A DNA stretch of 64,000 bases from Nyssa sinensis (lineage: Eukaryota > Streptophyta > Magnoliopsida > Cornales > Nyssaceae), in NCBI GenBank assembly GCA_008638375.1, contig CM018037.1:33093076-33157075 (forward strand). Reading direction: 5' to 3'. The notes below the pieces were generated by a model. It had not been told where the DNA came from. It saw only the letters and a list, made by a program, of their open reading frames with translations, and did no database searches. The position numbers and the translations under genes are program-made. Positions 7,501 through 55,300 of the stretch are shown here, piece after piece. The first letter of the stretch is position 1, and the number at the start of each line of letters is the position of its first letter.

Positions 7501-7900
7501 CTCCATTTTCTTGAGCTGGATCTCCGACCACGAGTCCATGGTGACGGATCGGATGAAGCTGATATGGACACCAAGGCCACGGTGTTGACTTCGAGACGTG
7601 AGAGATGGTCAGATCCATGGAGTGAGAGGGGTTGGATTTGCTGAGAATTGGATGTTTCAATTGGGTGAGAGAATGAGAAATCTAGAGAGAGATGCGCCTG
7701 GAGAACGTTCATCTTCTCCTCTGTTTCGCTTCTCTCTCTACCCGTAACCCCCTCCCCCTTCAACGCCCCACTTTCTCTCTAACGCATAACCGCCTCCCCC
7801 TTTTAACGCCCAACTTCTCTCCCTATCTAATCTTTTTTTTTTTTTTTTTTGAACCCAAATCCCCCTGATCCACAGTTGAGCCTCTCTACTTATCCCATTT

Positions 7901-7947
<47 letters not shown>

Positions 7948-9992: not shown

Positions 9993-10040
<48 letters not shown>

Positions 10041-19000: not shown

Positions 19001-19344
19001 GAAACATTGCATATTTCAGTTCTCTCTGTAGAGTTGTCTCAACTCCTCACACCGTTGAACTAATTATTGTATTCTCGCAGTTCTTCTGATGTTACGTACC
19101 TTCCTACTTTGATATCAATTATAGAGACAGTTCCTCTGAAGGGATTTGTGGATCATATAGTCTCTAAGCTCCTTCATTCTTGCGTGAGATTTGCACAGAG
19201 AAAGAGTGATCCGACATCATCTGAATCAGGTTCATTCTGTTCTGGTGCCGGAACATTTACTATTTGCTGTTTTGATTTGACTGGTCTATTCTGGGATTAT
19301 AACATGCACCCACATTTACTTCAGATGCTGAAAATCCTTCTTGT

Positions 19345-19379
<35 letters not shown>

Positions 19380-28300: not shown

Positions 28301-31300
28301 CATTAGATTTTGTTTTTTAAGGTTTTGTTGACACATGTTGCAATCTTGCATCTGCCACAGTATGGTTGTCAACAGGCAGTTGATCCCCTAAAACCTCCCA
28401 TATGTTTGCTGGCAACTTGTGTGGCATCTCTCTTGCAGTGGGCTGATGGAGTCAACACCTTTTGTTTCATATCCAGAGGGTCTAGTGATTTCAGCAAGCC
28501 ATTGCCCCAGTTGTTGGGAAATATCCAATGGTGCAGGCCACGGGTGATATCCATGGAGAGGTGCCAAATGTCCCCCCTAGATTTAGTTATAAACAATAGG
28601 TAAATTCAGATTCACTGTAGTTGTTTTCATGTTGATTGGGTGATGCATTTGGGTGGAGGCTTTCTTGTTTTCCTGTACTAATCATTCAAGCAGCAGATTT
28701 AGGATTGCTTCTGTTAGTGCACTTTATGTAATATACTAATGGATGGGGAATTTGTTACCTCTCATGTTGGACATTTTTTTACTTCTGTTAATGCATTTGA
28801 GTGTCATTCTGTCATATAATTTTCTATATTACTTTCACTGCCTTTCTTTTTTATGATTTTAAATTGCTGACTTCTTTTTAATTTTCTTTTTTTAACTTAT
28901 TTTTGGTGTCTCTCAGACATTGGTCAATTTTTTGCATTATATGAAGCCTGCTCTCCAGTTTTGCGAACTGAGTGGAAAAGTTTTGAGTCTGAGGGTGATG
29001 TTTTATCCATGGAAGAGGTACAAGAATAATTAAATTGTTTTTTTTTTTTTGGTTGTGGAGTAGATTTCATATGACTATTAGGATTGCTGACTTCTATGAT
29101 TTTTGTCCTTATCTATTAGCTCACTCTGCTATGTAATTTACAGGCCGACACAAGAATGCTAGACGAGGATTGTGAAGCATTTTTGGATCAGCTAGTTGAT
29201 ACCAACTTTATAGATTTGAATGCTAGGATTCTCATTTGCTTATTTTGGAGGATACTCAAGGCATTTATTTCAACATCTACAGATGTCACATTGGTTGGTG
29301 ATGCATTTTTTTTATAATACATAGTTTACTTATTTGTATGTTTTTGTTTCAAGGCATTTATCTCAACATCTACAGATGTCACATTGGAGGGTGATGTTTT
29401 TTTTTAATATATATTTTACTTATTTATATTTTTGTTTTTTTGTAGTAGATAACTGCCCCATTTCCTGGTTAGTTATGCCTTGGTGGTTGAGTTTAGTTTT
29501 ATCATTGTCAATGCTGAATGTGAACTTATATTTGTTGCAGGATAATGATGGGAAGTGGGTGTGCAGACTTCAGGATCTGTTTGTGTTTTTTGCTACATCC
29601 CCGTCAAAGCATGTTTTCAAGAGGCATCTTCAATACCTAGTTGCAAAATGCAAGATTTCTCCAGTCCATTTTCTGTCCAAGTTTTTTACTGAAGAAGGTT
29701 TTTTTTTTTTGGCTTCCTCTTTCATCACATATTCTGTTATGGTTATGTTGTTCTTCCTTTTTTGTTTCAATTGGGCATTTTGAAATTGTTTAAAGATTGA
29801 GACACGTCTAGGCTAATCTGATGGGCGTCCAAATTCTGGGAATGTTTGAGTGGATATACAATCAAATCGAGGTCTCAAACCTGGTCTCCATGCAAAAGCT
29901 GGGATAAGAATATCCCTGGGGCATGGATGTCCTATTCACTCCGTATATCCTCTGAACCAAATGTACCATTTGATTAGACATGTATTCAACCCCCACCCTG
30001 GGGGGGGGGGGGTGTCATATGCTCCTCTTTTAGCTAGCTCCTTTCATGATGGTTTCAGTGTTTGCCTGTTTCATTGTTTCACACTTCCATTTTGCAGGTG
30101 TTTCTGTTGCAGTTCAAGTTGAAAGTCTTCATTCCTTTGCGTATCTTTGTTCTCAGACAGAGGAGAGCTTATTTTTTCAACTCCTTGCCAATTTCCCTTC
30201 AATTCTTGTTCCGCTCTCCGGTGATAATCAGGTTTCAGAACTTTCTGTTGACTCTCCTGTGCTCTTTGCAGCCTTAGCAAGACTCATCAAAGAAATAGTT
30301 TCCTGTTTCATTTATTTCTTGCTAAGAATGCTGATATAGTTGATTTAACATCGTTGGTTATGAATATATTTTGCTTTAGTTGAATTATTATTTTGCTTTA
30401 GTTGAATTATTACATTTACTAAGTAGGATTTGTTTACCTTTTTCAGGATGTACGAATTGCTGCCATGAGCTGCATTGAAGGACTATGCACACTGTGGCCT
30501 CGTGTTAATTTTCCTAAATGGAAAAATGGTATCATCCCTGTCAGATTCACTCTTTCTCTGTCATCATTTTGGTAGTTTGCCTTCAAAAGTGGCTTTCTCT
30601 AATCCAGAAAATTGACAGGAACCAATGCAATTTGGAGTCATTTTCTTGGGGAACTTTTGGGCTTAATCATCCAGCTAAAGAGGCTTATATTATCAGACAG
30701 AAATGTTCTATCCTCGTTTTTTACATCTTTGCTCAACTCCTCTTGCCATAACATCTTAGTGCCGGAGACTATTGGACAGAGGTTTTCTTCTTATATTTAT
30801 GTCATCATCATAAGTGTTGTCATCTTCACTATCACCACCATTGGCTTTTTGTTTCATCCCCTTTGTCAAGACTATAAGCATTGTATATCATTGATGTTTG
30901 CACCTATGTTAGATGAACTCTTATGTGTGTAAAGTGCAAGAACATGCCTAACTGCCTAAGTATCGGACATACCAAATACTCAAAAACATGGACAGGGGGA
31001 TACGACAAAATGTATATATTTTTTTTAATGTTCTTCTCAATCATGCAACTAAAGGAACACTGATAAGAGAGTTTTACGCACAATTATATAGTGAACTTGA
31101 ATTAGTGGACATGTTTGGTGCATGTCCAATTCGGCATGTCAAACACATATCCCATATCCATGTTTGTGTGTCAGGATGTTTGACACGGGTACTTCAGTGC
31201 ATAAAGAACAGCCTGTGCAACATAGATTTATGCTATATGAACAGATTCTTCCCTCACTCTTCATGGTGCATGTATTCTATAAAATGATGCCGTTTGTCTG

Positions 31301-34300
31301 ATTAAAAGAAACATGCCGTCTTTTTTACTTGCTTATTAGAGCAGTTGTAGTATAAAGAGCTTGATAAATATAGCTTTTGTGTCACATTATGTGAAATAAG
31401 GTAACTGCCTCCATGATATGAAAGTTGTATTTGCATTACGGCCGAAAATATTTTTTCAATATTTAAAGCAAAGATATTTTTTTCGATATTTAAGGTGAAG
31501 TGGGGTGGCATGACGACTCTCTCTTAGCATTCAAGTAGCTATGGAAGGGTTTTGCACAAGGGGACTATTGCAGATGACAGGAATATGGTGGGAAAGAGTT
31601 GGGAAAAGTTCTGCAGTGGTTTAGAATGAGATCAGGAAAGGGTGTTCGAGGGAGGGATCCTTGCACAGAGATAACTCCTACAGGTGAAAGCAACTTTCTG
31701 GGCAATACTTTTTTTTTCCCCATTAGTGAAAGCAACTTTCTGGGTATAGGCGGGGTGGTGCAAGGTTGGAGTGACACAGAAGGGGCTCTAATTCCGGGAT
31801 TCGAAGAGGCAGCTTTGAATGTGGAGTGTAGGAAGAGGAAGATGGCTGAGGTATCGGGATAGTTGTGTGGAAAAATAGAAGGGGTTTGTAAATTTTTGGG
31901 TGTCTCGTCTCAGATGATGGCTTTGAGGATATTTTTTTTTTTGATAGGTAGCTTTGAGGAAAACTTGATGAATCTTTTTGCAGCTCTGGAGCATGCTAGA
32001 GGGTTAGGGAACGTGATAAGGAAGATAGGAGAAGGAAAAAAGGAAGCTCTAATGGTTGAGAGTAATTGAAGAATCTGTCCAATTTGGTCAAATATGAGTC
32101 AAGGAGGGATAATGGGGTGGGAGTTTCTTCCAACAAGAAGGGGAGGGGACAATTCATTGATTTAAAGTGACACTCGGAATCTTTTTTCATGGAATGTGCT
32201 GGGTTTAAACAACTAGAGAGAGAATTCTTATCAAGGCAATGCTTAAGGAGTGGGAGATAGGTGTGATATGTTTGCTGGAAACCAAAATGGAGAATGTATC
32301 TAGGGAGATTGATTGGAGTATTTTGGGGAGTTGATAGGTGAAGTGAGAATTCGTAGGGGCAATAGGGGTACAGCTTTTTTTTTTTTTTTTGGGGGGGGGG
32401 GGTGTTATGGTGTTGTGGGATTCTAGATTGCTTGATAAGGTGGATTCTTGGATGGGGCTTTTTCAGTCTCTTGTTTGTTATGTATTATGGAGATGGTTTT
32501 TCAATGGTTGTTTTCAGGGGATTATGGTCCAGTGGATGATAGAGATATAGGAGGCTTCTATGGACTGAATTGGAGGAAGTTTGAGTTAGATGGGTTTGCT
32601 TGATATGCATAGGGGGCTTACTTCAATGTGGTTTGGTTTCTTTGTGAACGGTAGGGATGTATAGAACCACAAGAGAGAGTAGGGAGTTCTCAGATTTTAT
32701 CGATGGTGTGAATTTGTTTGATTTCCCATTGGGAGCCAGACTTCACATGGTTAAATGGGAAGGAGAATCTGTCTTGTCTAAACTGGACAGGTTCTTGGTC
32801 TTGCCAGATAGGGAGGAACATTTTATGGGGCTTCTTAGTTTTGACTTCTTGGACCCATGTTAGATCATGTTCTTGTTATGTTCAACGGTGGAGGATTGTG
32901 AAGGGTAAAAGGATTGTTCCATTTTGAGAACATGGGGCTTAGATCGGAGGGCTTTGTGGAAATGATGACTTTGGTACTGGATTGAGTTGTATGACTGGCT
33001 TCTGGCTGGTGCTATTAGAAGAAATTTTTTGGCACAATAAATCTAGTGCTCTTTTTAATTTATGGAGACAAGAATACCGCATTCTTTGATAGGGTTGCCA
33101 ATGCTCACGGGAGAGCTAATCATATTGGAACAATAGTTATAGATGGACTATAGGTTCTTATTCTTTTATTGTTTGATTATTTTGTAGAGTTCTCAAGGAA
33201 TATGAGCTTTTGCTTGTGATTTTGTATTGTTGTATGTCTAACCACTTTTTTTTGGCTCTTACATTGAATTTTTCTTATAAAAAAATGTTAAGAGGAAAGT
33301 GTAGGAATGTTTCTCAGTACTTCTTGGTCTGTCTAAGATGTAGCAAAAACGAGTTTTGTGACATCATAACTAGCTTGTACGGTCCCAAGTTAAGAAGCAT
33401 GGACACTTCGTGGGAGGTGTTGGACTTCGTGGGAGGTGTTGGACATATGTTGGACACCTACACTTGTTTGTCTAATGCATCTTGGACATGTACATAATCT
33501 AAAATAAAAGTCTCAATTTTGGACACTTGAATAACACTTCTTGAGCACTTGCCAACATATGATCTATGAAACTTGGACTTCAAGGATGGTTTTCTTTTGT
33601 GGCATGGAAAAAAGTTCAATTTCTATTAAAAATATATAAGAAGCTCGACCATACTTGGAAAACAAAGTAAGATGTTAGAAGGTTCTATCAAAGGCATGGG
33701 AATAGGAGAGTTGTCATAATTATGTGTACATGAAAGTATACATATCTACATGCGTGTGCACACACACACACACACACACCTCTTTTTCAAGGGAAAAATA
33801 TATGTACACGCAGGCATTGTGTCGTTGCTATTTCTTTGACGTGACATGGGTGATTATTGATCATTATGTTTTTTTTTTCAAGTATGGATAATTATTATTC
33901 GTAACTTACAAATTTATGTTACAACCATAATATTAGATTTTTTTCCTCTAAAATAATTGTTAGAGAATATAATAATAAATTACACCCCTCTCTAATAGCT
34001 TAAGTTTTTAGATGAGTTGGTGGCTTAACATGGTATCAGAGTAGGCAAAAGGTCATGAGTTTAAATCTTATCGTCATCCTGAATATATGAATTGACGTGT
34101 AGGCTTAAATTGGCCACATGTGAGAGGGCGTGTTAGAGAATATAATAATAAATTACACCCTCTAATAGCTTAAGCTTTTAGTTGAGTTGGTGGTTTAACA
34201 ATAATGATCATGTGATTCATGTGTATATAGGATCAAGAGGATATTATTCCACCATTTTTTTAATTTGGTTGTCCGGGAGTTTCCCGGACTTGATACATAG

Positions 34301-37300
34301 TTTTTTAGAGTTTATAGCTGATTTGAATTGTAAATATTACGCTATTGTTTTGTTCTGTTCCTTTTGTATATGGGTGCGCCCCCTTGGGCGCCCTTTTATA
34401 ACAACTCCTTTACTCTTATTTTTGGATAGGTAAATCATACACACAGACACAGTTTGCCACTGAGGGGACTTCCTCAACCTCCCATATGGGGCGGTAGAGG
34501 AGGTACCAGGCAAGCTAGAGCTTTTTAGTTAATAACTCCTTTGCTTAATAATTTTTTTTTTCTTTGTTGTGTACTAGCTATGTCTATGGCTTACTTTTCT
34601 ATATTTGCTATGTTAGTGTGTCTGTGTCGTAGCCTGTCTGCGTGTTGCTGTCCATGCTTTATAGGTCCCAAATTATGGAACCTATTGATTTATGCATAAT
34701 GATGTTGTATGGAGAGTCGTCTGATGGGTCATTGCCGATACATTAAGTTGCACTTTTAACTAGTGAATATCGTATAATGAATGACCGTGTCAGAAACTCA
34801 TATCGAGGACTTTCTGGATTGACTGAATCAAGTGGTCCTTGCCGATTCTTAAAACACTAATTTTCTGTAGTATTTCAGACTTGTTAACAATATCTAATTT
34901 TGTTTAAATAAGTATTACTGATATCTAATTTATTTGTATTATTGAACTAAAAGAGTCTTGTTTGACATGCTTTTTCAGGTTTGATCAGTCTACAAAAGAT
35001 GACATATTGGGTTTTATTTTAGGCTCTGCTCTAAAACTTCCTGCATATGCCAAGGTTAGTATGCATTAACGAATTTTTCCATTTGTCCCTTGCAACTTAT
35101 TTAATGTATCAGTCGGCCTTTTTATGAAGATAAATTATTTATGGATCAAGACTTATAAAAGAAAACTTATTCACACATATATATATATTTTTATTTTCTG
35201 TCATGTTTGCTCCATAAAAATTTGGGACTTCACCATAATTGCTTGGGAGAAAGAAGTAATGAAATTAATGTTTTTGACAGCTAAGAATTCTATGTTTGCT
35301 CAAAGGCGTGGGAAATGGAGTTACGTGTGTCAAAGATGTTGAGTCATTGTTGTGTGAACTTTTGCAAAGACGGCGTCAATATCATATTAAGTTTGATAAG
35401 TCATGCCCTAAATTGTTGAAGACTGAAGTTGAAATCCTATGCCTTCTATTGGAGGTAATGCGAAGATGTTCCCCCCTCCCCCTCCCCCTCCCACAACCAA
35501 ACATATTTGTGTCTCATACTTCCTTATTTAATGAGAACTCAAATTTCTATTCATGCTAGAGCTGTGCGGTGCCAGCTTCATCATTCAGTGGACAAATTTT
35601 TGAAGATCATGTATTGAAGGCCTTGGAGGTAAATAGCTATTTGCAACCTGTTTTGTTTATTTGGCATTTTTAAGTTTCTTAATACTGCAATATGTATATT
35701 TATGTCTTTTTCTGTACCGTTACATTTCCAGTTAGACTGCATGTCCTCCGAAGACCCTGCCATTGTACAGCCTTGTATAACTGTTTTGAGGAATCTCAGC
35801 AATACCTTGTACGGAGCTTTGAAGAAAGAGATACAGGTAACTTTTATTCATTAATAGAAACATGACAGAGATACAGGTAACTTCTATTCATTAATAGAAA
35901 TATGCCTGGAATTTTTGTTAAAGATTACATCAGCATCCTGAATTTTTGTAGATAACTAATGGAAAGAGCAACAGTCGGGTGCCTTTTTTGGCCTGATAAT
36001 TTAAAAATACATTGCAGATACACACTCATTCCCATGGTTAAACCTCAAATTTAGATATATGCTGGATGTTGTTTAATTATTTAGACATCTTTTTTTATCA
36101 GTAAATGTCATCTAATATTAACAAGGCCCCCAAGGGGGGTGAACCTATGTACAAGAAGGGGAAAAGGCCACAAAAATCAAAGGCTAAGGTCCCCTAAAAG
36201 ACCTAAGAAGTTGTCTAAATAAATGGGAGGTTCTTCTTTGAACCAAAAGAAAGCCAACGGAAAAAATTGTCTTTAAACTTCCAAGGAGAAAGTTCAACTC
36301 CTTGAAAAGTTCTCTTGTTGCTTTCTCTTTGAATGCACCAAATAAGAAGAAGTGGTGTCCTTCTCCAAGTGTGCCTCAAATCCTTCCTTACATGGCTATA
36401 CCTCCAACCCAAAAATAAATCTCCACTGGTTGCCGGCAATTACACCCAAAAAGAGATAACACTGTGCATCTCTCGCCATTACCTTCATCAACATTTCCTG
36501 TATTTTGGGCTACCTATAGGTTTTTAAATTGACATCTTGATGTCATATAGTTATCAAATCTATCAAAATATATTTCTTTAGCAATTTAGTTTTCTTTTTT
36601 TTTTGTTAATTTCATGTTTTGAAATTTGATTTTTTTTTGGGGTCAATTTAGAGGTAGGTTATGAAATAAATTTTGCGTCAACATTTTTAATGTTATATTT
36701 TAGTCACCTTGAGGGGGTGGAGCTGGCTGTAAATGGGCTTAAGGATGTTACATTATGAAGTTTGCATTTTGCAATTAAGTACTTATTCCTTGCCACTCTC
36801 CATGTAAAGAAGGCCTTCAAGGTCCAATTTGAACCCGCATTTGCCCAACAGAAAAACCACGTCCCCACAGTAAACCACTTGACCTTGATTTCAACCTATA
36901 CATCAATTTGGGATCTTGACAGATTTTTTCTGGCATCAACATATAAGAACCTTAATATTTAGTATCCTAACACAGCTAATGTTTTTTTTCCTCTCAAGGA
37001 AACTAAATCATTTTTTTATACCAAAAACAAACTAAAATATTAATATTATCAACAAAGATTATGAGAATGATCTGTAATATGCTTCTATGTTTCTCATAAA
37101 AGTCGAAATTTGTGGATATTTACTCCCCATGAGGAGTTAGGATTGGGTTTGTGGAGGTTTGGGTTGTTTATGGTTTCTTGTAAGTGAAGGATTCCTCATC
37201 CTTCTGTTATTTTCTCTAGTCTCCCCCCCACTCCCTTCTCTATGTTTCTTTTTTGATAAGCAAAGGAAATTCTATTAAAGCTGCCCGAACGGGGCACAAA

Positions 37301-40300
37301 ATACAAGCAAAGGGGGCAGCTTACAATTAAATGCTTAAACCCCCCAAAAACTCAACAAAGAACCAATATTACAAGGAAACGACTCTATGACCCAAAAGTA
37401 TAGAAAGTGTAATACCCCCCCCCCCCCCCCCCCCCCCGGGGGGTCTCTATGTTTAATGAAATCATTGTCTCATTGTGTGTATATAATACTATATATATAT
37501 ATATTTGGATTTGTGAAATGGAACATTAGAGTATGGCACATCATATTAAATCTATATGACATTGTGTGGATGCATATGAATAAAGTGGATGTAATTGAAA
37601 AATTTAATGCACAATTGAAGATTAATTTCAACTGCATGTCACTGATATATTATAACATTTGAGACAGAGATATAGATATACATGAAAGAGGTGTATAGTG
37701 AAGGTAAGGTAAGACAACAATGTTCAGTTTCAGGCCTATTGTTCGATTTTTGAATCGTGTGCTCTATCTAAACTAAGTTGGGAATTCATTGAAAGTTCTA
37801 AGCCGTAAAATGCAGCATTAAGGTTATACTGACTTAGGATTGTTTAAATGTCTGTAAATGTTAAAGTCATTATGGAGCAAGCAACTAACTTGTTGCTTAT
37901 CAAATATTGGCTTTGCTTCAGTGGTCTGTTGGCCATTATACCGACAGTTAAGTTGATATTCTGTTATTTGTTTTTTTCTTCTCTCATGAGCTAGCTGCTG
38001 TTTTAAGCACCAGAAACATTTGTTAGCGTTGAACGCACTGTTTGAAGGATTTCATTGATTTCTACTTTTGAAATTATCATCCCAGTGAACCTTGTTACAT
38101 ATTTTTGCTGGGAAAATAAAACTACAATTCATTCCTATTCTATGAACTAGAGTTTTATTTAGTTTCTTGTTTTGACAGGAACTTGTTTTTCGAGACCTCG
38201 TGTCTCTGTTTCGAAATTCTAACGGTGATATACAAAGTGCCACCAGAGAAGCCTTGCTGCGTTTAAATGTTTGTTCCTTTCCCTCTTTTTGTCTGGCATT
38301 TTTATTGGTTTTTGTTCTAAATACTTTAAAAGTTACTTGTATTACTTAAAACATTTATTTCCAGCCCCTTATGTGGTATGATTGTTTCTCTCTTGCCAAG
38401 CTCATACTCTGATCATGAAAGATTGTATGTATCGGTTTCACCTTGGCAAAACTGACCTATGTTTATTGAACAAAGTGTGAAATGGTTCTTAGGATCATAG
38501 ACAGTTCAGTTGTTAATAAGGAAGCAAAACATCTGCCTGATCAGATGACAATTTGAGTTATTTTATAATTAATTTCTTTGAATTGTAAAATTGTATTTAT
38601 AAATTTTCAAACCCTGCTTTCAAATTATCTGGTGGTGTTTGGAAATTCTTGGACTGGTTTTCTAGGCCATGTGATCACTACTGTAATTGTGACATTATTT
38701 ACACGATGAATATTTTAGTTCGACAAAATATTCGCAAGAAATACTTGTTGCATGTTTATATACTTGTCGCTTGTTCTTGTGAGTGAATGTTGGATGGCTC
38801 ATGTATGAATTGTCTGATGCAACCTGGAAGCCTGAAGAAAAGGTATCGTGTGTGGCAGTGAGCTGTTGGAACTTGGAATGGCGATGACTGTAAGATTGTC
38901 CTGTAAACAAGTGCAAGGGCTAGTAGTTGGTTCCATGAGTTGGCCATGGACTATATATAATATATTGCTTATAAAAAAAGGAATAGGCCATGGAATTAAA
39001 TGGATTCCTGGAGTTATCAAGCTTGGTGTTTGACTCTTGGACCATGATGGAGTGCTAAGACGATCATGCAGAACGACATTTCTAAAAAAAAGAACACTGA
39101 TACGTCGAGAACACATTGAATATATATATATATATATTATGGTTTTATATGACCACATAATAAAAATCTAACATTATTTCAGTCAAAATTGGCATAAAAA
39201 ACACTCAAATTATGACAATATTATTAAGATAACAATCATTAAATAAAAATTCATGAATTTCATCAATCATCAATATCCATGATACAAGTTTTAAAATAAA
39301 TTTTCTAACTATTACATAAAACATACATATACAAATATGTATATATATATATATATATTTGTATATCTATAACACAAAAAAAAGTGCAGAAGATGAGAAA
39401 ACGAGGGAAATTCCAGAAAACGTGTCCCTAACGTGTTCAGTAAGTGTTCAAAATTTAGAAAAATGAAAAGAAATTGGACACTCTTTTCTTGCGTATCTGG
39501 GACGTATCTGTGTCCAGCACGTTTTTGACAGGGATATGTGAGCTAAAACAGGTGCTTCATAGATGGAGTATAAAGAGGCCAAATGAAGCGACTTGGTCTT
39601 TCTGTAAATGGATTAGGGATGGTGATGTTGGTATACAGTTCAAAATTGCCATCATGCAGTCCAATTTTGAATGATTATGGGTGCATAATATATGGTCTCA
39701 AGTATCATATGATGCTGCTGTGTGGCTGATGCAGAATCTTTTAAAATTTAGCGCTATTGGGGACTAAGGCTTCATGTAGAAAGGTTCAAGTTTGGGTAAG
39801 AATGGGTTGGATAGGGTTTGGGATTAGGAAAGTTAGGTTTTCAGTGTTGTTTAGGGGTTTTTCCTGTGCCGTGAACAATCATTGACTTTGGTTTTGTGCT
39901 TGAATCTTGATAGAGGGAATGATAGGGCTTATGAAAGAGTGGTTAACAGGGTTTGTTTATAAGAATGATATTGAAGAAAATTGAAAGGAAGAGAAGAAGA
40001 TTGGGAAGGCGGAAGGCACAGGCAATCAAACCTAAGTTCTTAGGAACTCAAACCAAAGGAAAGATGCATCATACACCATAGGTAGTGAACTTTAATAGAT
40101 TTCTTCATTTCCTATCCAAATAAAGGTAATACATGCTTTCTGTGGAAGACAAGGACTTGGACACTACGGAATATATAGAAGACAAGGACTTGGAGATTAC
40201 GGGACATGGTGGCCAAGTTTGTCTCAAAGACATGGGCTCCTTTTAACCCATTTAGACCCACCAGAGCTGCCCTAAAATACATTAGTGAGCCCATTACTAA

Positions 40301-43300
40301 AAACCCAAAATGGCAACCCATTCTACAGCTGATAAGCAAAACTACTGAAATGCCCCTAACATAAAATACTTAAGAAATATATAAAAAAGGAATAAATAAA
40401 TATAATTAATCTATCAGGCAATCACTAAACTAGAATCTTATCAGATGACTATGTTGGCCTTTGAATATGATTTTCTCGTTCTCTTATAATACTTTCTCAA
40501 CCTCCCGAGCGCATCCTTTGTATTAGTCACATTATCACAAGGTGCTGATTTTGAAAATGCCTTAGAGATAAGGACCGGAAATGAAGGACCAAGGACAGTT
40601 ACTCTTTCCATGTGCACTTATGGTTTCACCTGTATTTAACTTGCCAGCTACCCTGTTGGTAAAGTCTTTTCGCAGATATAATAGAACCTGGGAATGAATA
40701 CCACCTTCATCAAGGTTTTGGAGGTTAATATAAAAGGGAAAGAGAGAAGAAAAACGAAAGAGAAGAAAATATGCTGATCTTTGCTTGGGGAAATGGTAAA
40801 TGGTTGGGCTGTCAAATTAAAGAATGCAAGTTCTGGACTAAGGATGGAAATTGGTGCAAATTAAGAAGGAGTTGATGTTTGTACCTTGTCTTCCCCTCCC
40901 ATACGGCAAATTGATGGGCCAGCATAATCATGACCGTTTTAAATAAGCAGATTGTATTGCACTTGCATATTTTAGTTGTGTTTTCATGTACTAAAATATG
41001 GGAGTTTATACTTCATATAAATTTGAAACCTAGACACACCCATGTGCAGTCCACATGACCAGGTCACAGTAATATAGCCTGGAAGATGTCTTCTTTCATG
41101 TGTAAATCCTACTATTCAGAAATAAAAGGATTGTAGTGCAGAGTTGTTCTACTTGGCTTGATGTTCCTTAATTGTCCATTTTTTTTAAACTTGAGAAAGT
41201 TAAAGAAAAAATGACTTGTAATTTGTTGATATATATTTCCTTTAAGAACCTGGTATCTGGTAACTTTTTCAGATGTTTCTTTATGTCTGACGTATGCCTA
41301 AGTGATGCCCTGTTGGCTTTTGTGTGGCTCCACCAGTTATGAATTTTATGGTTTTTTTATCAGAATCTTGATTTACCCTGACACAGCTTGCCCAAGAAGT
41401 TTGTGGATGATCCTATTGGCATTCCTCTAATGTTGCAGATTACCAGCTCCACTGTAGGTCGGATGCTTGATTTCTTTTTTGAGCAGGAAGGCCTATTCAT
41501 TGGTTTGGCATGTGGGAAGAAGAAAAAGAAAGCAATAAAACATCAAAACAGCGAACTACGTCATGATGTAATTTGCAAAGGAGAGAATGCACTTCCGTTT
41601 CTTAGCTCAGCTCCTTGATATTATGCTATTGAAGAAAGACATGGAGGACAGGTCTCTAGTTTTTGATTATCGCGATTGCTTGTTTATTGTAGTGGTCATT
41701 TTGTGCTTACTGATCTGTTTTTAGTCTTCTTCAGAGCTGGTTATATACTCAACTAATTATGTTTTGATAAGTATATACTTGAATAATTATATCCTATCCT
41801 TTGTTTTATAGGACTAATCTTATAGGGCCTTTGTTTAAGCTTCTTCGCAAAATATTTTTGGATGAGTGGGTCCATGAGTCTGTTGACCAAGATGGGAAAT
41901 ATATACAAGCTTCATCTGGCACTTCTCAAACATTTACCAGCACATTATGTTACATTCAACAGACGCTATTATTAGTTCTGGAAGATATTTGTGCTTCACT
42001 CTTATCTGTTATTCCAATAAAGGTGTGCCTCCCATTCACTGAATAAATGTCTCATGGTTACCCAAGTATTTTCTCCTTTCCTCTCTTTTCATATAATCAT
42101 GAGTAACACAGGTTTCATTGCAGGAGGACATAGTTAATTACTTTGACTTGAAAATGTTGGTTGAATGTGCCCGTTCTGCAAAGGATGGAATAACCCGCAA
42201 CCATGTGCTCTCGTTGTTATCTACCACAGCAAAGGTCTTACCAGACAAAGTTTTGGACCACATACTAGATATTTTTACCGTTATTGGGGAATCAGCTATG
42301 ATGCAGGTCTGTTGGTGTTTTGGCCTCATGTTGGTTGTATGATGTAACTTGTGAATGTATACAGCCATGCTTGAGATTCAATTTGAGATATTTAGTGTGT
42401 GTGGGTGTTTGCATGAATACTTTTGCTTATATCTATATATTTGTTTGTAGTTTGACAGCCATTCACAACATGTATTTGAAGACCTCATTTCTGCAGTAGT
42501 CCCATGTTGGCTATCTAAGACCTGACAATGCTGACAAATTGCTTCAGGTAATTTTATAATTATTTCTTCAGCTGTACCTTCTCACTGCTGCCTTAGCAAG
42601 TTTTTCTTATATTTAGGCACTAACTTTGTTGACTTTGGCCTTCAGATTTTCATAAATGTATTGCCTGAAGTTTCCGAGCATAGAAGGTTATCAATTATTG
42701 TGCACCTTTTGAGGTATTATTGACAAATTTTGTTTTTCCAGTTGAGTCCTTAGCTTTTGCTCGACTTTGACACGCTTCCTTTTCAGGACATTAGGAGAAT
42801 GTAGTAGTTTGGGTTCATTGCTCCAACTCCTTTTCCATTCACTGGTTTCAAGGAGAAGGTTATCTTGCCCCAGTAATAGTATGGAATCTATGGACTGTTT
42901 TACTTCTACTACTCGTAAAGAATGGGAGTTCTTATTTGCAGTGCTAGTATGTGAGCAGTACTCATGCGTGATATGGCTTCCTTCTCTTATTATGCTACTT
43001 CAACATATAGAAGTGGGTACTTGGGGTGAAGAACATGTGCTTGGAACTGCTTGTAGCTATGCATTTTAGTTGCTCGACAAATTAAAAGATCCTGAGCTTG
43101 CATTTAAGCTCGATTCTGGTGAAGATTCGGATAACATTCAGGTATATGTTGATTAAACTTTTGATCCTTGTTGTATTAACCTGTAGCTTGAAATGGAGAA
43201 TTTTTCCTGCTTTACTGTCACACCATGTGATGGCCACTATAGTTCCACCATTCATGGTGGGTCCTACGTAGGGTTCACAAATACTTGAATCACAGTGGCT

Positions 43301-46300
43301 GTCGCATGGTTATGACAATCACATGGGATATTTCTCCTAGGAAATGTAGCATTCTTTTGTCCACCAACTCAGCATTTAATGCTTATGTCGTGTTATATCA
43401 TCAACTCCTCTAAAAGCCTAAGTTGTTAGAGTGGGTATATATTAAGTATTAAATCCTCTAATATGCCCCCCTCATGTGGCTAGAGGCCCCATCACGAGTG
43501 GGCCAACAAGTGCATTAATTATAATTATTAGGGTGATGGTGAGGTTCGAATTCATGACCTTTGCTTTCACTGATATCACATTAAACCACCAATTCTTCTA
43601 AAAGCTTAAGCTATTAGATAGGGTGTAAAATGTAAATTAAGTATTTAATCCTCTTAACAGGTTGCATTACTTGACTGCTACTTGACTGAATTATTTTTTG
43701 CAGTAGCCATAGTCTGAACAATCACACAACTGTTTGCATCTAGTAACTTGAATGGAGAGAGATGTTACTGTTTTCATTCTTTATTTTTATTTTTTATTTT
43801 TTTTAAATCATGCATTGATATAGTCATGATATGATTTTCCATGGGTTATGCACTAGTATTACTCTTTTCTTTTTTTTTTTGTTTCCATGTTCTCATTATA
43901 ATGCTTATCGCGAACTAAAATACAAGGGAGTACGGTTTATTCTATTCTGGGCATTTGATCAATAATTTTGCAAGCTTGTAATCTTATTAACTTGTACTAT
44001 AACTAGGCTGGAAAATGCTTAATATCCAATAGATATGAAGGTTTTTTTTTTAGTGGGAGTGAAATGAATATTATGCTACACTTTTGTTCTGGTAGTTTTC
44101 TGGTGTTTAGTAAACATGGAGGATGCTTTCTTCATGAATATTTCCCAACTTGAACGTATCTTTATGATAATTTATTTACTTAACAGAGAACAGTTGGAGC
44201 CCTTATGGAGCAAATTGTCTATCTTTTATGTATGGTTGACTCGAGAAGAAAGCACACAAGTGCTCCCCTTGCCCTCAGGAAGGAACTCAAGGAGTGTATG
44301 GGTACTGTCTTAAAATCTATTACAAAGGGCCTGCTACCCTTGGCATACTTCAAAGGCATCATTAAATTGCTGGGCCACACAGATAGAAATGTGAGAAGGA
44401 AGGTAAGAAGCACATTATATTTATTTATCATCATCATGAATAATTTTGTATTAAAGGGAAGGTATTGAGCAGAGCAATGGTCTTCCAGGATTTTCTCAGA
44501 GAGATTTCCTGTGCTAGAAGTTAGTGTAACTGTCCCTTCTTTCAATTGCCTTGGACTGTTTGAAAGCATGTAAGATTGTCCCAAAATTAAGGTTGACAAC
44601 TTAGATTGGCCAATATATATGCTCTCAGAAAGTGTTTGAACTTCAAAGGCTGCAGGACATGTCAGATATCATTTTAACAGTCCGTTTGAAAATTTCTACT
44701 ACAAATTATCCAATGGATCCTCTGTTTTGCTCATAATTGCTTCTGTATTATTTTTATTATGATTTTCTTTGAGTTATATTATACATTTGCTAGATGGTTG
44801 AGCACTGTCATCTCTGAACACATCAATATTTATTTTCTTTACAAGCAGGCTCTTGGGCTTCTATGTGAAATAGTGAAGGACTCTGGCAGAGTTAAACTGA
44901 AACATGAGAGAAGGGAATTGAATTCAAATTCAAGTCATTCTTGGCTTCATCTAGATGAGAGCGCACTTGAGTCCTTTGACAAGATGTGTCTAGAAATTGT
45001 GAAGTTAGTTGATGACTCTGCTGATGATTCAACCACTTCCTTGAAACTGGCAGCAGTTTCGGCATTGGAAGTATTGGCCAACAATTATCCTAATAATCAT
45101 TCTCTCTTCAGCACATGCCTTGCATCTGTCACTAAAAACATCCCTTCAGACAACTTGTCCGTCTCTTCCAGCTGCCTTCGGACAAGTGGTGCTTTGATCA
45201 ATGTGCTTGGGCCAAGGGCATTGTCTGATCTTCCTTGTATCATGGAGAATGTGTTAAGGAGGTCTCGCGATGTCTCCTCATCTCTAGTGGCAAAAACCAA
45301 ATATAGTGATGATAGCACTTCTAATGCATTAAAAAATTCTAAGGAATCTCTCTCAATGTCAATTCTTATCACCCTGGAGGCAGTTGTTGACAAGCTTGGT
45401 GGTTTTTTAAACCCATATCTTGGGGATATCTTAGAACTTGTCAGTGTTGCATCCTGAATATGTGTCAGGATCTGAACTAAAGTTGAAAATGAAAGCTGAC
45501 GTAGTGCGGAAACTTGTAACAGAGAAAATCCCTGTAAGTTTCTTTATCAAGACGCTTGATGGTCGATTTTTGTTGGATCTCTTGGTTTCATTCACTTATT
45601 GGTAACCTTACTTTCTACTGATCCAGATTTTGTTGGCTAGGTTCGGCTTTTACTTCCATCTCTGCTGAAGATATATTCTGAAGCTATTAAATCTGGAGAT
45701 TCTAGTTTATCAATTACTTTTGAAATGCTAGGGAACTTGGTTGGTAAAATGGATAGATCATCTATGGGTGCTTGCCATTCAAAAATTTTTGACTTGTGCT
45801 TGCTGGCGCTAGATCTTCGTCGTCAACACCCTGCCTCAATTACGAACATTGATGTTGTTGAAAACAATGTCATCAATGCCATGATTGTTCTGACTATGAA
45901 GCTCACAGAGACCATGTTTAAGCCTCTTTTTATTAGGAGTATTGAATGGGCAGAGTCAAATGTGCAAGAAATTGAATCTACAGGAAATACAAATATTGAT
46001 AGGGTTATATCTTTTTATGGCTTGGTCAACAAACTTGCTGACAGCCATCGGTGAGTCAATTACTCCCTTCTATATTTCAAGTGTTCTTCCTTTCTAGTTT
46101 TGCTTGTGTGGTGTTACCTGATTAGTTTTTAGCTTGTACCTGGATCGTTATGGAGCACGCTATAGGACTGTGTACGTGGTGCACTGCTTTACCAAGAATG
46201 AGGATGGGGGTTTACTTGTATAAGCAAAATAAATTTATTAATTAGAAGTTAGAATATTATTTAAACTGCTAATTGTACCTAATGTTTTTGGCATTTTCTT

Positions 46301-49300
46301 ACTGGATGGATATTTGCTATTTATTTACTTATATATTGTTTGGTTTGCTAATTGAGAGAAGAAGAGAAGTCTTTGACGAGAGGAGGGAGAAAGAACATGG
46401 AAAGCTTCAAAATTTCATCCGTTTAGTTATAGGGAAGAAGTTAGTTGACTAGTTTTTTTGAGATTTTCTAGCCTTTTGTTTTTTTGGGCTTGCAAACACC
46501 ACCAACAAGATTGACAAGAGAAGAACCAGGGCACACACAAGCAATTTATAGTGGTTCGGCTAAAACACTTGGCCTACATCCACTTTTGGGTGATGGTACC
46601 TTGATCCAACACCCATATATCCACTAAAGCTATTGACAAGCTTCACCTTTACAACTTATCATTCACAATACAAACTTCTATTCAGTTGATACGGGGCCGA
46701 TCTTCCACAATACAATACAACAACACAAGAGTACCTCTAGAATGGGCAAGATACAACAATGAATACATAATAATAGAGAGGATATAGTTATGAAGATGAA
46801 TATAGAATCTCTTTTTCTTTACTCTCTTGAGTGGCTTGAGATTTGAGAGTTGAGTCTTGGCCTCCTCTTGATGGAATCAAAGTTTTTTTTTTTTTTTTTA
46901 TCAGTAAAGGATTCTTCTATTAACACGGGGCCCGAGGGGCATACACCCATGTACAAGGAAACGAAAGGACCACAATTAAAGCCTTAAATCCCCCCCCCCC
47001 CCCCAAAAAAAAAAAAAAAAAAATTCAAAAAAAAAACTATCTAGAAGCATCGGGCTTTCTTCTTTCACCCAAAAAAAAAAAACAATCTCTAAAAATTGTC
47101 TTTAATCTTCCATCTTGATGACTCCACACCTTTAAGAATCCTCTACTATTTCTTTCCCATCAAAGACACCACATAAGACATGGGAGAAATCCGCCAAGCT
47201 GGACGCAAAATTCTCTTCATACGGCTACACCACCAACTTAACAAAACATCTCTAACTGATGCTGACATCACCAACATGCATCCAAAAAGAGAGAAAACCA
47301 AATTCCACCCGTCTCTAGCCACCTTGCAATGAATCAAAAGATGATCCACTATTTCCTCTTCCTCCTTGCACATATAACACATGGATAGGCAAGCAAAAAC
47401 CTCTTTTCCTAAGGTTGCCTGTCGTGAGAATTGCTCCCCAAGCTGCCAACCAAATGAAAAACGTAGCTTTCTTTGCCATGGAAATGCTAAGCACCAAGAC
47501 TTCTTCCTTTTCGAGAGTCTTGGTGCTTTGAATTTCAAAGGTTGAGCCCTTGAATTGTCTCTTAATGAGCCAAGCCTCTCTTTTTATATTCTTTCCCTTG
47601 AATTGTCCCTTTAGATTGAGCCCTTGAATTGTCCCTTTAGATTTGAAAACATGTGGTTAGAAAGTGAAGGTTTTGTGAACTTGGTGAGAAATTGGTGGGA
47701 GTCTTATGTTGTGACTGGGTCTCTAAGTTTCTGTATTGCCAGAAAGCTGAAACTTCTCAAAGAAGACCTTAAAAAATGGAATCGTGAGGTCTCTGGTTTA
47801 ATTCAGGATAGGAAGTAGTCTATGCTGAATAACTTGATGGAACTAGACAAGGAAGATCAGATGGGATCCCTCTCTGTTGAAAAAAGGGTTGAGAGAGAAG
47901 TCCTAAAGGGTCAAATTGGACAGATTCTCAAGATAGAGGAAATCTCTTGGAGGCAGAAATCTCGGGCCGTTTGGCTTAAAGAGGGTGATCGCAACACAAA
48001 ATTCTTTCACAGAATAGTTTCTTCACACTACAGGAAGAATAAAATCTTCTCTATTGTTATTGACGAACAAGTTCTCACTGAGGAGGAGCCCATAAGAAGG
48101 GGAAATTGTTGACTTCTTTTCTAGCCTTTACTCAGAGCTGCGCAGCTGGAGACCTGGAGTGGATGATATCTTCTTGAAAAGACTGAACGGGGATGAAGCC
48201 TTTAATCTGGAAACTCCTTTCTTGGAGGATGAAGTGGTGAGAGCTTTAGAGGCATGCAATGGGAATAAAGCTCTAGGTCCAAACGGGTTCACTATGGCCT
48301 TCTTTAAAAAATGTTGGGTTGTGTTGAAAGCGGATGTGATCGTGGTTTTTGGGAGCTTTCATAGGGAGGGGGGGGGTTTGAGCGAAGCCTCAATGTTTCT
48401 TTCATTGCCCTCATTCCTAAAAAGGAGGGTGCTGTTAGCATTAAGGACTTTCGCTCTATGAGTCTAGTGAGCAGTGTTTACAAACTGATCGCAAATGTTC
48501 TTTCGTTAAGATTGAAGAAGATTATGGGTAGTATCATCTCTCCCAGTCAAAACGCTTTTGTGGAGGGTAGACAGATCCTGGATGCGGCTCTCATTGCTAA
48601 TGAATGCATTGACTCTAGGATAAAGCAGAAAAGGAAAGGGCTGGCTTGCAAGCTGGATATTGAAAAGGCTTTTGATCATGTAAACTGGAGTTTCTTGATG
48701 GGTATGTTGGCAAAGATGGGTTTTGGGGGCAAGTGGAGGAAGTGGATCCAGTCGTGCATATCCACAGTATCTTTCTCGGTCATCGTCAATGGATTCCCTG
48801 CAGGCTTCTTTTGTTCTTCTAGAAGTTTGAAACAGGGGGATCCCCTATCCCCTTTTCTCTTCATGATTGCTATGGAGGCCTCGAGTTACTTCATGTTTCG
48901 TGCTGAGGAAGTTGGCCTCATCAAAGGCTTTCAGGTGGGGGAAAGAAGGGGTGGAGGCGCTGTCATTTCCCACCTTTTATTCGCTAACGACACCATCATT
49001 TTTTGTGACCCCACAATGTGTCAGCTTCGCTTTCTTTGGTGCATTCTCGTATATTTTGAAGCCAGTGTCAGGCCTACGGATCAATCTTGCTAAAAGCAAC
49101 ATTACTCCGGTTGGGGCGATACAATGGACGGATATGTTAGCCAACACTTTGGGCTACAGAGTGGGCTACTTCCCCTCGACTTACTTAGGTCTCCCGTTGG
49201 GAGCTCATGCGAGATCCATTGGGGTTTGGGATCCTGTGGTTGAAAGGTTTCTTAGCAAGTTGTCAGGTTGGATAGGCCAACTCCTTTCTAAGGGAGGCAT

Positions 49301-52300
49301 ACTCACTCTTGTTAAAAGCACCTTGACCAACCTCCCTACCTCTTTCATGTCTCTTTTCCTTATTCCGAAGACAGTTAGCAGAAGACTGGAGAAGATTCAA
49401 AGGGACTTCCTATGGGGCCACGAGGGAGATTGTAGAAAGATTCACTTAGTTGAGTGGGATAAAATCAAGAAGCCACTATCTCTAGGGGGTTTAGGGGTGA
49501 AGGACTTGAGAATCTACAATATAGCTCTTTTAGGGAAATGGTTATGGAAATTTGGTGAAAGTGATAAGGAACTTTGGAGGGAGATCATTATGTCCAAGTA
49601 TGGGTGTGACAATGGGGGTTGGTGTTCGGGCAGCGCGGAAGGGCCGAGGGGATGTGGTCTTTGGGGATACATTAGAAGCAATTGGAGGATTTTCAAGGAA
49701 AGGTGTAGTTTTGTTATCGGGAAGGGAGATCGGGTAAAATTTTGGGATGATGTTTGGAGTGGGGCTGAGCAGTTGAAGGTGAAATTTCCTATGTTATACA
49801 GATTGGCTAGCAACAAGTCGGCTTGGGTTAGCGAGTGTGTGGAGAGTGTTGGGAATAGGTTTGTTTGGACTCCTTGTTTTAGAAGACACTTTTTTGATTG
49901 GGAACTAGAGGAGGTGAGCTAATTCCTTTGTCACATCAACAATTTCCGGGCAATGGAAGGTGAAGAGGATAAGAGAGTTTGGATGTCGGATAAGATATCA
50001 TTTTCTGTTAGCTCTTTCTACAAGAGCTTGTTCGTTTTTGAAAGTCCTCTCTTTCCTTGAAAGCTCATTTGGCACTCAAAAGCCCCCCCTAAAGCCTTCT
50101 TCTTCGCTTGGGAAGCTTCTTGGAAGGCCATTTTAACTGCGAAAAATATGAAGAAAAGAGGTTTTCTTTTGGCTAGCAAATGCTATTTTTGCAAGAATGA
50201 TGAGGAAAGGGTGGATCACGTTCTCAGTCCACTGTCATGTTTCTTGGAGCTGCTAGAACCTTATTCTTGTCCATGTTTGGCTTCTCCTTGAGTTATGTCA
50301 GGTTTCGTTAAAGACCTTCTGTTGGCTTAGGGAAGGGTGCATCATTTCAAAAGGGATTAAGAGGATTTGGAGACTGACCCTAATTTGCCTCTTGTGGTGC
50401 CTTTGGATTGAAAGGAACAATCGTGTCTTTGAAGATCGGGAACTTCCTACTCCTTATCTTAAAGATGCCTTTTTGCGTTTAGTTTTTTTTTTGGGGGCCA
50501 AAAAGGCTTTCCCGGTAAATGTCTCTTCTTTTGTTGATTTCTTGGGGTCATTAAGACCGATGTAAAACTTTTTGGGGTTTTTGCCCTCTTGCCCTTCTTG
50601 GGCATCTTTATATATACTTCTTACTTATAAAAAAAAAAAAACAATGTACTATAATTTTAAACAATTAGGAATTGCATAAACTATTTGTCATGTCTTCTTT
50701 GCATTTGGCTTGCATTTCGTAGTGTTATGACAAAATTTGTGGGACAGTTAATTCTTACCTACTCAAAACTGGGTTTTGTATGGCATGGGCTTGTTTTGTA
50801 TAGTTGTGGGCCTGGACTTATGCGATTTATCTTCACTTCATCTTGGGTGAAACAAATGTGTATACAGCCTGAACCTCCTTTAAACTGAAGTAACCGTAGT
50901 CCTGTATTTTTTAGGATTTTTCATTTTTTTGGGTTCAATTTCAGTTATTTCCCATGATTATAAGGTGCAAGGCAAGTTCTCGGCTCATGTACTTTGTGTA
51001 AAATCTGTTGTACATTGAGATTTTTTTACTGATGATATTGAATTTTTAATGCAGATCGTTGTTTGTCCCATACTTCAAGTACTTGCTTGATAGTTGTGTA
51101 CGACATCTTATAGATGCTGAAGATGCAAAACTTGGTCTGACGCATAAGAAGAAGAAAGCCAAGCTTCAGGAAGCAGACAGTAATAAGAGAGATGTAGACA
51201 CTGCGTTATCACTTGGAATATGGCATCTGCGGGCATTGGTGTTATCATCATTACATAAATGCTTTCTTTATGATACTGGGAACCTGAAATTTCTTGACAC
51301 ATCAAATTTTCAGGTTATAAAATCTCCCTGTTTTCTTCTATACTCTACAATATTTAGTAGTCCCTTCAATTTTTCATAATACATAACTTAACATCGTGGA
51401 CATACTTGCTGCAGCTTGTATCAGTATTTTATCCATTATCGTAATTTATAATTGAATTCTTTTTCTTATAAATCAGAACAGTTAAGTTACTGGGATGGCT
51501 GATCACTATAATGTCTGATCATTTGATCTCTTCTTTTTATGTCTTTTTTCTGACCTTCAGTTTGATAAATTGCATTAGTTTAAGATTTTTTGTTGTTTCC
51601 TATCAGTTAATCAGAAAACTCCCTTGAGGATTGAAATTATAAATATCATTGCTACTTCCTCCACATTTTTAGGATGTTCTGTTGCGATTTTGGTAAGCTG
51701 TACTTTGATTTATCCATTGATTACCCAAGTTTTCTAATTAATTGGATGTTCAACGTTTGGCAATTTTCTCTTGTTGGTTGTTGAAGTTCGTAGTTTTGCA
51801 TTGTACGTCTTGTAGGTCAAGCAAAATCACACAGGAGACCTTTGTTTGACTCGACACCTGACTTGTTTACTATCTTCACCTGCTTATACTAACAAAAGAA
51901 CCATTGCCTATTTTGTGTTTGTGCGCGTGCACGTGTGTGTGTGTGTGAGGGAGGGAGGGAGGTGTGAGTTCCCTATTCTTAGCCTTGTATAGGTTGTTAG
52001 CTTCCAACTAAATTTCATTATGATAGTGAAAAGAAAGGGAGTCAGGGTTTCACCATCTACTGGTTCCTGTCAATTAACCAACTGTACCCAGCAAGGATCA
52101 AAATTTCGTTTCTTTTCCATCGTAATGGCCGAAACGTTTCCGTTTCTCAAGGAACCGAAATGAAACACTAGTATAATATCGAAATTCACATGTTTTCAGG
52201 AAACATACAGAAACTAGTGGAAACATACCGAATCAGAAGAAACATTTCTTTTGTATCAACAATAATTCTAGAAGTTAGTAAAAAATAATATCCATTTATT

Positions 52301-55300
52301 TTTCAAGGATTAAGACTCAAAATTACAATAAAATATTTTTATTATTTTTCCTAAAATAATAGAAAAGTAATAGGAGAAATAAAGTGTAGAGAAATAACTA
52401 TTTTAATACTAAGTTATTAATTATAATAGGTTTAAATCGCTATTTGTTTTACTTTTTATTTTATATGTAACTTGTGTCAAATTATCTAATTCGTAGATAT
52501 TACATAGTATATATCTATTATGTTATTTATCATGAATTAGTGTCGTTTATCATGAATATGATGTATATGTGTTAAACATGCACAAATATTCAATAAATAG
52601 GCTTATTTGTATAAATAAATAAAGTTTAAGTTATGTTTCCACATGTTTCTAATTTTTTCTCCGTTTCCATTATGTTTCTGAAACGTTTCCGAAACTTTTC
52701 CATTTCTGGACAGACCGAAATTATACATCGAAACGATATTTTGATCCTTGGTACCCAGAGCATGGTTTGATGAGGCTTAGAAATTTTTTCCCAAAAATTT
52801 CTTAAAGACCCTGTAATTTGAATATTCTATTTAGTCAGATTTGAATGATGAATTCATCAAAAGGGGATGAATTTAATATTCTATCATGTGCTTCCAAAAC
52901 TTTCTATTATAGTTTGAAATGATATTGATTTATGAAACATGATTCATGCAGCTGACACCAAATAGTTAGGATAAGGCTTTAATGAGTTGAGTTGGCAGTT
53001 TGGTATTGACTTATCTATTGTACTTTGCAGGCTGGTCTATTTGAATATGCTTCTGGGAGGAGTATGGAATAATTAATTGGGTTTATTTTGACTATTTGGA
53101 TGTTGTTTTGTGTAGTAATTATGTTTTCTTACTGTGGTATCACTTGTCATTTTTTTATTTTTTATTTTTTGATCAGTATCACTTGTCATTTTATTGGTTT
53201 ATTTTGATATGGAAGTGTATAAAAAAAGGAGGTTCAATTAAGCTTTTATATTCTTGGTGTTAATTATATGTCTGAACCTTCTATGCAAATACAAGTCCCA
53301 GTTCACCGGGTGGCTTTTAATCATCTTGATGTTATGCATGCCCTAGCATCCTTCAATAACCAATATTTGACTTGCCTCCAATTTGTAACTTAATTGCTGT
53401 TCCCCTTTAATTGATTCGTGTCTTCCTGTTTCTGCAGGTCCTCTTGAAACCCATTGTTTCGCAGCTTGCCGCTGAACCACCCGCTTCTCTAGAAGAGTAT
53501 CCGATCATACCGTCTGTGAAGGAGGTTGATGATTTGTTGGTTGTTTGTATTGGTCAGATGGCTGTTACAGCTGGCACCGACCTCCTTTGGAAGCCCCTAA
53601 ATCATGAGGTGAGTGAAGAATCACACCGCATTTAAAACCTCGTTTTATTCTGCAAGTTGCTCTTAGCTGTGAGCTTAACATTATGTACTTCTAATGATGA
53701 ACTGTGCCCATATGCAACAGACATGTTGGGTCTTTATTTTTGGCTGAAATATGTTAGTTCCAAAATACGGGCCTCTCTCTTATCATGTAGAGTTGATCCC
53801 ATGTAATTTGCTTTGTATGATAAGTTGCCATGGGGCCAAAAACTGCGGTCTTATTTCGAAATGCATACATCTTTGGATGTCTGAGAAATAGGGAGACAAA
53901 ATGGTTGACTAGTGCTTGGGATCACTCCCACTTAGGTTATTAGAGCGTATAGTGAGAGTGCAGGAGTGGTGAATGTGGCATGGTTCAGAGCATCTCTATA
54001 GTGGCTTTTTTTTTTGTACAAGTATTATGTAGACTGAACATACATTTCTTAGTTATAATTAATTTATATTTAACAAAATTCATTGTGCTGCTCATTAGAT
54101 GACCAGAAGGCAGCTGGTTTTGGTTCTCTTAGGGGTAAAAGGCAACCAAAACGAATTTATTGAATATAATTTTATTACATTTTATAATTAACTTTGTTGC
54201 TCACTAGAAAACCAAAAGTGGCTGTTTCTTGCTGTCACTACAGGGTGAAAGGCAATGAAAATGCTTGACATTCAAGCCCCCACTCTCCTTGAAGTGTTCC
54301 ATTTTTTATTCAATCTGTGCATTCCAAGTCGAACTACAGGTCCCCCAACCCCCTTTGGCTTGGTTATCCCAGCTCATCATTGACATTTCCCTTTTTTGTT
54401 AATTGAACCTGTACTTCCCTGCCTTTTTTTTCTTTTTCAAGCATGTGTTTATGCCCTTCCATGTTCCATCTCAAGTCATATCTATCTCGAGTCTCTTGAC
54501 ATAGTGTCCAATGGATATGTTGAGGTTCACTGTCATGAAGTCTTGCATTTAGACATGGCTAAGGAGTTCACGTAAGGCTTCATAGTTCATGCTGTTATTA
54601 ATGGTCATGTCAGTCGTGGTCTCATGAGCACCAAAAATGACCTGCTCACCACCCCTTCACATTACAACTGACTGAGCTCTTTAATATTTATTTAGTTATT
54701 AATTTTTTTTTGTTTTTTGGGTGGCAATGGGGGAGATGAAGCCCCACTTACCAGAAACAAAGAGAGGAGAATGATGGGAGGGGGAGCAGGAGAGGGTAGG
54801 GTAGGGTGCTTTGGAAGTTCCAAATGGATCTTGCTATAATTTGTAACACAAGTTTTGAAGAGGGAACAGTGGAAGGGCAAGAGACCCAACAGCTAAGGCA
54901 GGGGCTTTCTTCATTTTGTTTCATTGATTGGGTCAGTACTGCCCTCAAGTTGTGTGAAAACTACAAAAAAAAAAAAAAACCAATAATAGCCTGTGATTTT
55001 GGGTTCACCAAGCCCCCAAATATTGGTCAATGGCTAGTTGCTTCATTTTTATTTGCTCGAACAAATTTTTTTGGCTTCATGTTTATGACCGACTCTCTTT
55101 TATTTATTTTATTTTGGGATTTAAAATATTAACTAATACTGGATTTCCTCTATTGTGTTTCTCAAATTTTCATCACAGGTGTTGATGCAAACACGTAGTG
55201 AAAAGGTGCGATCCCGTGTTTTGGGCCTGAGAGTCATCAAGTATCTCGTGGAGAATCTGAAAGAAGAATATCTAGTGTTGTTGGCTGAAACCATCCCCTT

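What the first reader, a model, noticed from the sequence alone, without database searches (positions are those of the whole stretch)
41439..45533. UTP10 frame broken in four exons while all splice sites stay intact
Exons 1-27 and 36-39 read cleanly, yet exons 28, 31, 33 and 35 each need a base shift (near 41610, 42523, 43043/43068 and 45443), and exon 33 also shows an in-frame TAG. UTP10 is expected to be essential, so either this is a recently duplicated, decaying copy with a working one elsewhere, or it is a patch of uncorrected sequence. The breaks are not at long homopolymers, which argues somewhat against simple homopolymer error.
Basis: partly seen in the sequence, partly recalled or inferred. 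Interest (0 to 1): 0.75.

Follow-up and report, generated by a model that had tools for sequence, protein, structure and literature searches.

The report
Assembly-error patch in tupelo UTP10 gene
A Chinese tupelo tree's gene for a ribosome-assembly protein looks broken in several places, but the pattern points to a short stretch of faulty genome assembly rather than to a dying gene.

Summary
Four of the five breaks are net +1; the fifth is net +2 (equally -1). The "in-frame TAG" lies inside the mis-framed stretch of exon 33. The window is the Nyssa sinensis assembly (contig lengths agree), made from PacBio long reads with FALCON, Quiver and Pilon, haplotigs purged last. The deposited protein P0107 steps round the first breaks with odd introns and stops at the last, losing its C-terminal domain. 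The damaged exons show no relaxed amino-acid constraint, and an exon-35 DNA search of the genome finds only itself. Best reading: a local assembly artefact, perhaps both alleles of heterozygous sites written into a merged consensus, a failure published for early FALCON. That sub-mechanism fits but is not shown: its signature is no commoner than chance. Reads were not available, and a whole-protein search for a second copy did not complete (26 attempts).

The parts
3307..55409 (+). UTP10/HEATR1 (At3g06530-type) gene, 39 coding exons
   Evidence: spliced alignment to Cornus florida P0106; BP28CT on exon 36
3307..38268 (+). exons 1-27, one open frame, no breaks
41439..41651 (+). exon 28, net +1 break near 41610
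41812..42022 (+). exon 29, no break
42124..42306 (+). exon 30, no break
42451..42547 (+). exon 31, net +1 break near 42523
42646..42713 (+). exon 32, no break
42787..43141 (+). exon 33, net +1 break near 43034 and a second, compensating break (net +2, equally -1) near 43063-43078; TAG at 43067-43069 lies between them
   Evidence: pair called in 6 of 10 runs
44187..44402 (+). exon 34, no break
44849..45533 (+). exon 35, net +1 break near 45443
45641..55406 (+). exons 36-39, no break, include the BP28CT domain
41511..41607 (+). stretch of exon 28 that the deposited model P0107 leaves out as an intron (to within a few bases)
42950..43090 (+). stretch of exon 33 that the deposited model P0107 leaves out as an intron (to within a few bases)
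45455..45457 (+). stop codon at which the deposited protein P0107 ends, created by the exon-35 break

Best explanation
The gene in the tree is probably whole, and the breaks are errors in the assembly. In a stretch of about 4 kb the consensus built from PacBio continuous long reads kept a few extra single bases, which shift the frame in four exons. The most likely cause (inferred; about 0.53 overall) is that FALCON merged the two parental haplotypes here and wrote both alleles of some heterozygous sites side by side; Pilon then polished while the haplotigs were still in the assembly, and they were purged afterwards. The next most likely cause (about 0.35 overall) is ordinary uncorrected long-read insertions. 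Shown: the breaks, their sense, their clustering, normal amino-acid constraint, the assembly method and the distorted gene model. Not shown: read support, or which of the two causes.
For: Assembly recipe: PacBio Sequel 99x, FALCON, Quiver twice, Pilon once, Purge Haplotigs after Pilon, heterozygosity 0.87% (PMC6877568, parts 1-2 of 3 read). Same assembly: contig of 37,867,720 bases both in G000 and for protein P0107, Nyssa sinensis F0562_026456. Four of 5 breaks are net +1 and the fifth net +2; residues on both sides match at least some of the 8 relatives shown. Clustering p 0.003 to 0.0009, optimistic because the patch was drawn round the breaks. No in-frame stop. Changes at conserved columns in Nyssa: 3 of 131 in the patch, 12 of 389 elsewhere; Cornus 2 of 131 in the patch. 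Nyssa terminal branch 0.141 in the patch, 0.135 in exons 1-27, 0.104 in exons 36-39; Cornus 0.195, 0.206, 0.156. [quoted passage not shown] a collapsed assembly giving false frameshifts (passages of PMC8445201).
Against: No reads or same-species transcripts could be examined: the search with the patch read-through gave 11 hits, the best 62% identical, and the exon-35 search at best 71%. The authors report few homozygous SNPs (5,768), though that count does not include indels. The signature expected if both alleles were written (either letter gives the same protein), 4 of 6 by my own reading, is not rarer than chance: a random insertion shows it 42% of the time, p 0.21 for 4 or more of 6. The second exon-33 break is read as a one-base loss in the 6 runs that call it. 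No sequence gap lies within 30 kb on either side, so this is not a contig-end effect visible as a gap. The FALCON version used for Nyssa is not given in the parts read, and the published artefact concerns an early version.
Confidence: 0.88

Rival explanations
1. A recently duplicated UTP10 copy is decaying here and an intact copy works elsewhere.
For: Several frame breaks with splice sites in place is what a young pseudogene can look like.
Against: Exon-35 DNA finds only itself in the 1.0 Gb assembly. Conserved columns and branch lengths show no relaxation, though a very young copy would show none either. No nonsense substitution in the model. All breaks lie in 31% of the coding length (patch drawn after the fact). 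One sense of shift: if 40% of natural frame-shifting indels are insertions (an assumed share), 6 of 6 has p 0.004 and 4 of 4, the certain ones, p 0.026 (arithmetic). The whole-protein search for a second copy did not complete, so a copy missing from the assembly or diverged at exon 35 is not excluded.
Confidence: 0.06
2. The breaks are a real loss-of-function haplotype in the sequenced tree, heterozygous with a working allele.
For: The tree is 0.87% heterozygous and haplotigs were purged from the assembly.
Against: Five or six lesions on one haplotype with normal amino-acid constraint would need a long-lived null allele of a gene expected to be essential (general knowledge of UTP10, not tested).
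Confidence: 0.03
3. Plain uncorrected PacBio insertions, perhaps in a thinly covered stretch, with no link to heterozygous sites. This is the second half of the best explanation, so its odds are part of the 0.88.
For: Long-read errors are mostly indels (PMC8445201 passages); local clustering.
Against: 99x coverage and three polishing rounds should remove most; no site touches a homopolymer longer than four bases, and one touches a run of four. Neither point is decisive; local coverage was not available.
Confidence: 0.35

Closest known systems
Indels from haplotype merging in early FALCON assemblies (PMC5632298, passages seen)
   Same: FALCON, PacBio continuous reads, diploid sample, indels introduced where haplotypes were merged, altered gene predictions
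   Different: There phasing removed the problem and transcripts were used as a check; here neither could be done
Apparent frameshifts in a collapsed assembly of a diploid eukaryote (PMC8445201, passages seen)
   Same: Collapsed PacBio assembly; truncated reading frames caused by nearby allelic variants
   Different: Another organism (Trypanosoma brucei), and read support was available there
Plant UTP10 / HEATR1 (At3g06530 family)
   Same: Domain set and 39-exon gene that aligns end to end with Cornus florida
   Different: Frame breaks in four exons of this assembly; none of the 8 relatives shown has an extra residue there

Membership tests
UTP10 / HEATR1 | U3snoRNP10, HEATR1 and BP28CT domains | tested here: met
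   BP28CT on exon 36 (E 5e-25); U3snoRNP10, ARM_At3g06530 and HEATR1 domains in the locus's deposited protein P0107
UTP10 / HEATR1 | End-to-end alignment with orthologues | tested here: met
   2167 residue pairs with Cornus compared, 73.9%, 73.7% and 82.9% identical in exons 1-27, 28-35 and 36-39
Pseudogene of a duplicated gene | A second, intact copy in the genome | tested here: inconclusive
   Exon-35 DNA: 1 place, itself; whole-protein search unanswered in 26 attempts
Pseudogene of a duplicated gene | Relaxed amino-acid constraint | tested here: not met
   3 of 131 versus 12 of 389 conserved-column changes; branch lengths
Pseudogene of a duplicated gene | Nonsense or splice-site lesions beside indels | tested here: not met
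   0 in-frame stops, 38 GT..AG introns; the alignment program itself admitted only GT or GC and AG sites
Long-read assembly indel patch | Assembly made from continuous long reads, collapsed diploid | tested here: met
   PMC6877568 methods
Long-read assembly indel patch | Indels clustered, without excess of amino-acid change | tested here: met
   Clustering (patch drawn after the fact); amino-acid changes. Silent changes were not tested
Long-read assembly indel patch | Accurate reads contradict the indels | not testable with these tools
   No reads held
FALCON haplotype-merge artefact | Each extra base is the second allele of a heterozygous site | tested here: inconclusive
   Compatible, but the signature is as common by chance (p 0.21)

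The most novel reading that the evidence does not exclude
The breaks are real in the only UTP10 gene of this tree, and the protein is still made, through alternative splicing that skips the shifts or through correction at the RNA or ribosome level.
Probability: 0.01. Interest if true: 0.9.

Novelty: not a real feature. Interest (0 to 1): 0.1.

Why it matters
It warns users of this assembly that the deposited UTP10 model (F0562_026456) is probably wrong: it leaves out parts of exons 28 and 33 as introns, moves the start of exon 31, and lacks exons 36-39 with the BP28CT domain. Counts of lost or shortened genes from this genome should be checked against reads. If haplotype merging is the cause, similar patches may exist elsewhere in the assembly (not tested).

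Tried and rejected
Noncoding test: repeats inside the patch and intron 27 were to show whether noncoding DNA there also holds extra bases; the copies found in 124 kb of local sequence are only 69-90% identical, too old to use. Same-species transcript: three protein searches gave none that I could recognise; the best hits other than P0107 were 71%, 70% and 62% identical (one search lists 120 of 439, many unnamed). Gap at the patch: no N in the window or 30 kb either side. Plasmid collection search with exon 35: no match, and not a fitting collection for a plant. Plain tblastn for frame switches was too coarse: exon 28 with 4 of 6 references, exon 35 with 1 of 6, exons 31 and 33 with none. Paper searches on UTP10 pseudogenes in plants and on residual indels with polishing returned 0 papers. 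Host RNA genes in introns: Rfam 0 matches, tRNA 0. Programmed frameshifting was rejected because none of the 8 relatives shown has an extra residue at any of the five places.

Full report
What the window is. The window lies at C15:33093076-33157075 of a 1,000,968,657-base genome. C15 is 37,867,720 bases long, the same as the contig that carries protein P0107, named by its source as hypothetical protein F0562_026456 of Nyssa sinensis. From exon 27 to its end P0107 matches the window exactly, piece by piece, apart from two residues that fall on exon junctions. The genome is therefore the Chinese tupelo assembly of PMC6877568 (parts 1 and 2 of 3 read): PacBio Sequel reads at 99x, FALCON, two rounds of Quiver, one of Pilon, Purge Haplotigs last; estimated heterozygosity 0.87%. 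The FALCON version is not given in those parts.

The observation. I aligned the Cornus florida UTP10 protein (P0106) to window 1-56000 with a dynamic program that allows introns and frame shifts. It returned 39 exons from 3307 to 55406, 38 GT..AG introns, no stop in frame, and five shift points: 41610 (+1), 42523 (+1), 43034 (+1), 43068 (+2) and 45443 (+1). The program admits only GT or GC donors and AG acceptors, so the splice-site result means that usable sites exist where the homology needs them. With five references and two penalties, the shifts at 41610, 42523 and 45443 came back in 10 of 10 runs and the exon-33 pair in 6 of 10. The second exon-33 shift returns the frame to the one in which the exon began, so the TAG at 43067-43069 is a by-product of the mis-framed stretch. 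That shift is read as +2 and as -1 in the 6 runs that call it; two single extra bases would do as well. By my reading of the alignment, the number and kind of residues in relatives favour the +2 or two-base reading. I therefore speak of six extra bases as the simplest count, with four certain.

What the breaks are like. In the alignment (33 rows, 9 shown at each break) the residues on both sides of each break match at least some of the 8 relatives shown, and none of these has an extra residue there. No site touches a homopolymer longer than four bases; one, near 43069, touches a run of four (sequences printed). The coding part of exons 28-35 is 2028 of 6510 nt, so five of five points there has p 0.003 and six of six 0.0009; the patch was drawn round the breaks, which makes both values optimistic.

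Is the gene decaying? In 131 patch columns where at least 93% of the other plants agree, Nyssa differs in 3; in the rest of the gene in 12 of 389; Cornus differs in 2 of 131 in the patch. Terminal branch lengths for Nyssa are 0.135, 0.141 and 0.104 in exons 1-27, 28-35 and 36-39, against 0.206, 0.195 and 0.156 for Cornus. By ratio to Cornus the patch is slightly longer (0.72 against 0.66 and 0.67), which I judge to be noise without having tested it. There is thus no sign of relaxed selection on amino acids, though a very young lesion would show none either. Silent changes could not be tested, as only proteins of relatives were held.

Is there a second copy? The DNA of exon 35 finds one place in the assembly, itself. 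Among the 120 listed relatives (of 439) only P0107 is named as Nyssa, but many carry no name. The search of the assembly with the full protein was tried 26 times and never answered, so this point rests on one exon.

What the depositors' model shows. P0107 (1689 aa) leaves out about 95 bases inside exon 28 and about 140 inside exon 33 as introns, starts exon 31 late and in the frame that follows the break, and ends at the stop made by the exon-35 break. It has lost the BP28CT domain, and its HEATR1 domain is split into two matches. An annotation forced round frame breaks is what an assembly error produces, but a real lesion would do the same.

Mechanism. PMC5632298 (passages) reports that early FALCON merged haplotypes and introduced indels at some nucleotides that differ between them; PMC8445201 (passages) reports false truncations in a collapsed assembly for a like reason. 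The Nyssa pipeline has the same elements. By my reading, four of the six extra bases can be read as two synonymous letters written side by side and the other two as conservative changes. A simulation in intact exons of the same gene shows that 42% of random insertions look like that, so 4 or more of 6 has p 0.21. In the same simulation 43% of random insertions equal a neighbour; at least four of the six here do not under any reading I found, which is not unusual. The mechanism is thus plausible and published, but not shown here.

Verdict. The frame breaks are in the deposited sequence as described, and they are most likely not in the tree. As biology the finding is ordinary; its use is as a warning about this assembly and its UTP10 gene model.

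Noticed in passing
47600-50570: A LINE-type retrotransposon with a reverse transcriptase domain (RVT_1 on 48365-49090, E 2.4e-25) sits in intron 36 of UTP10; its reading frame appears broken in several places. Whether by decay or by the same assembly error was not tested.
   Followed up: partly
39060-39487, 18062-18284, 56341-56706, L005:8543-8785: Copies of one dispersed repeat, 69-77% identical.
   Followed up: no
43391-43628 and 33980-34200: Two copies of another old repeat in opposite orientation, about 70% identical, in introns 33 and 22.
   Followed up: no
4523-13192: Intron 5 is about 8.7 kb long and several other introns exceed 3 kb, so the gene spans 52 kb.
   Followed up: no
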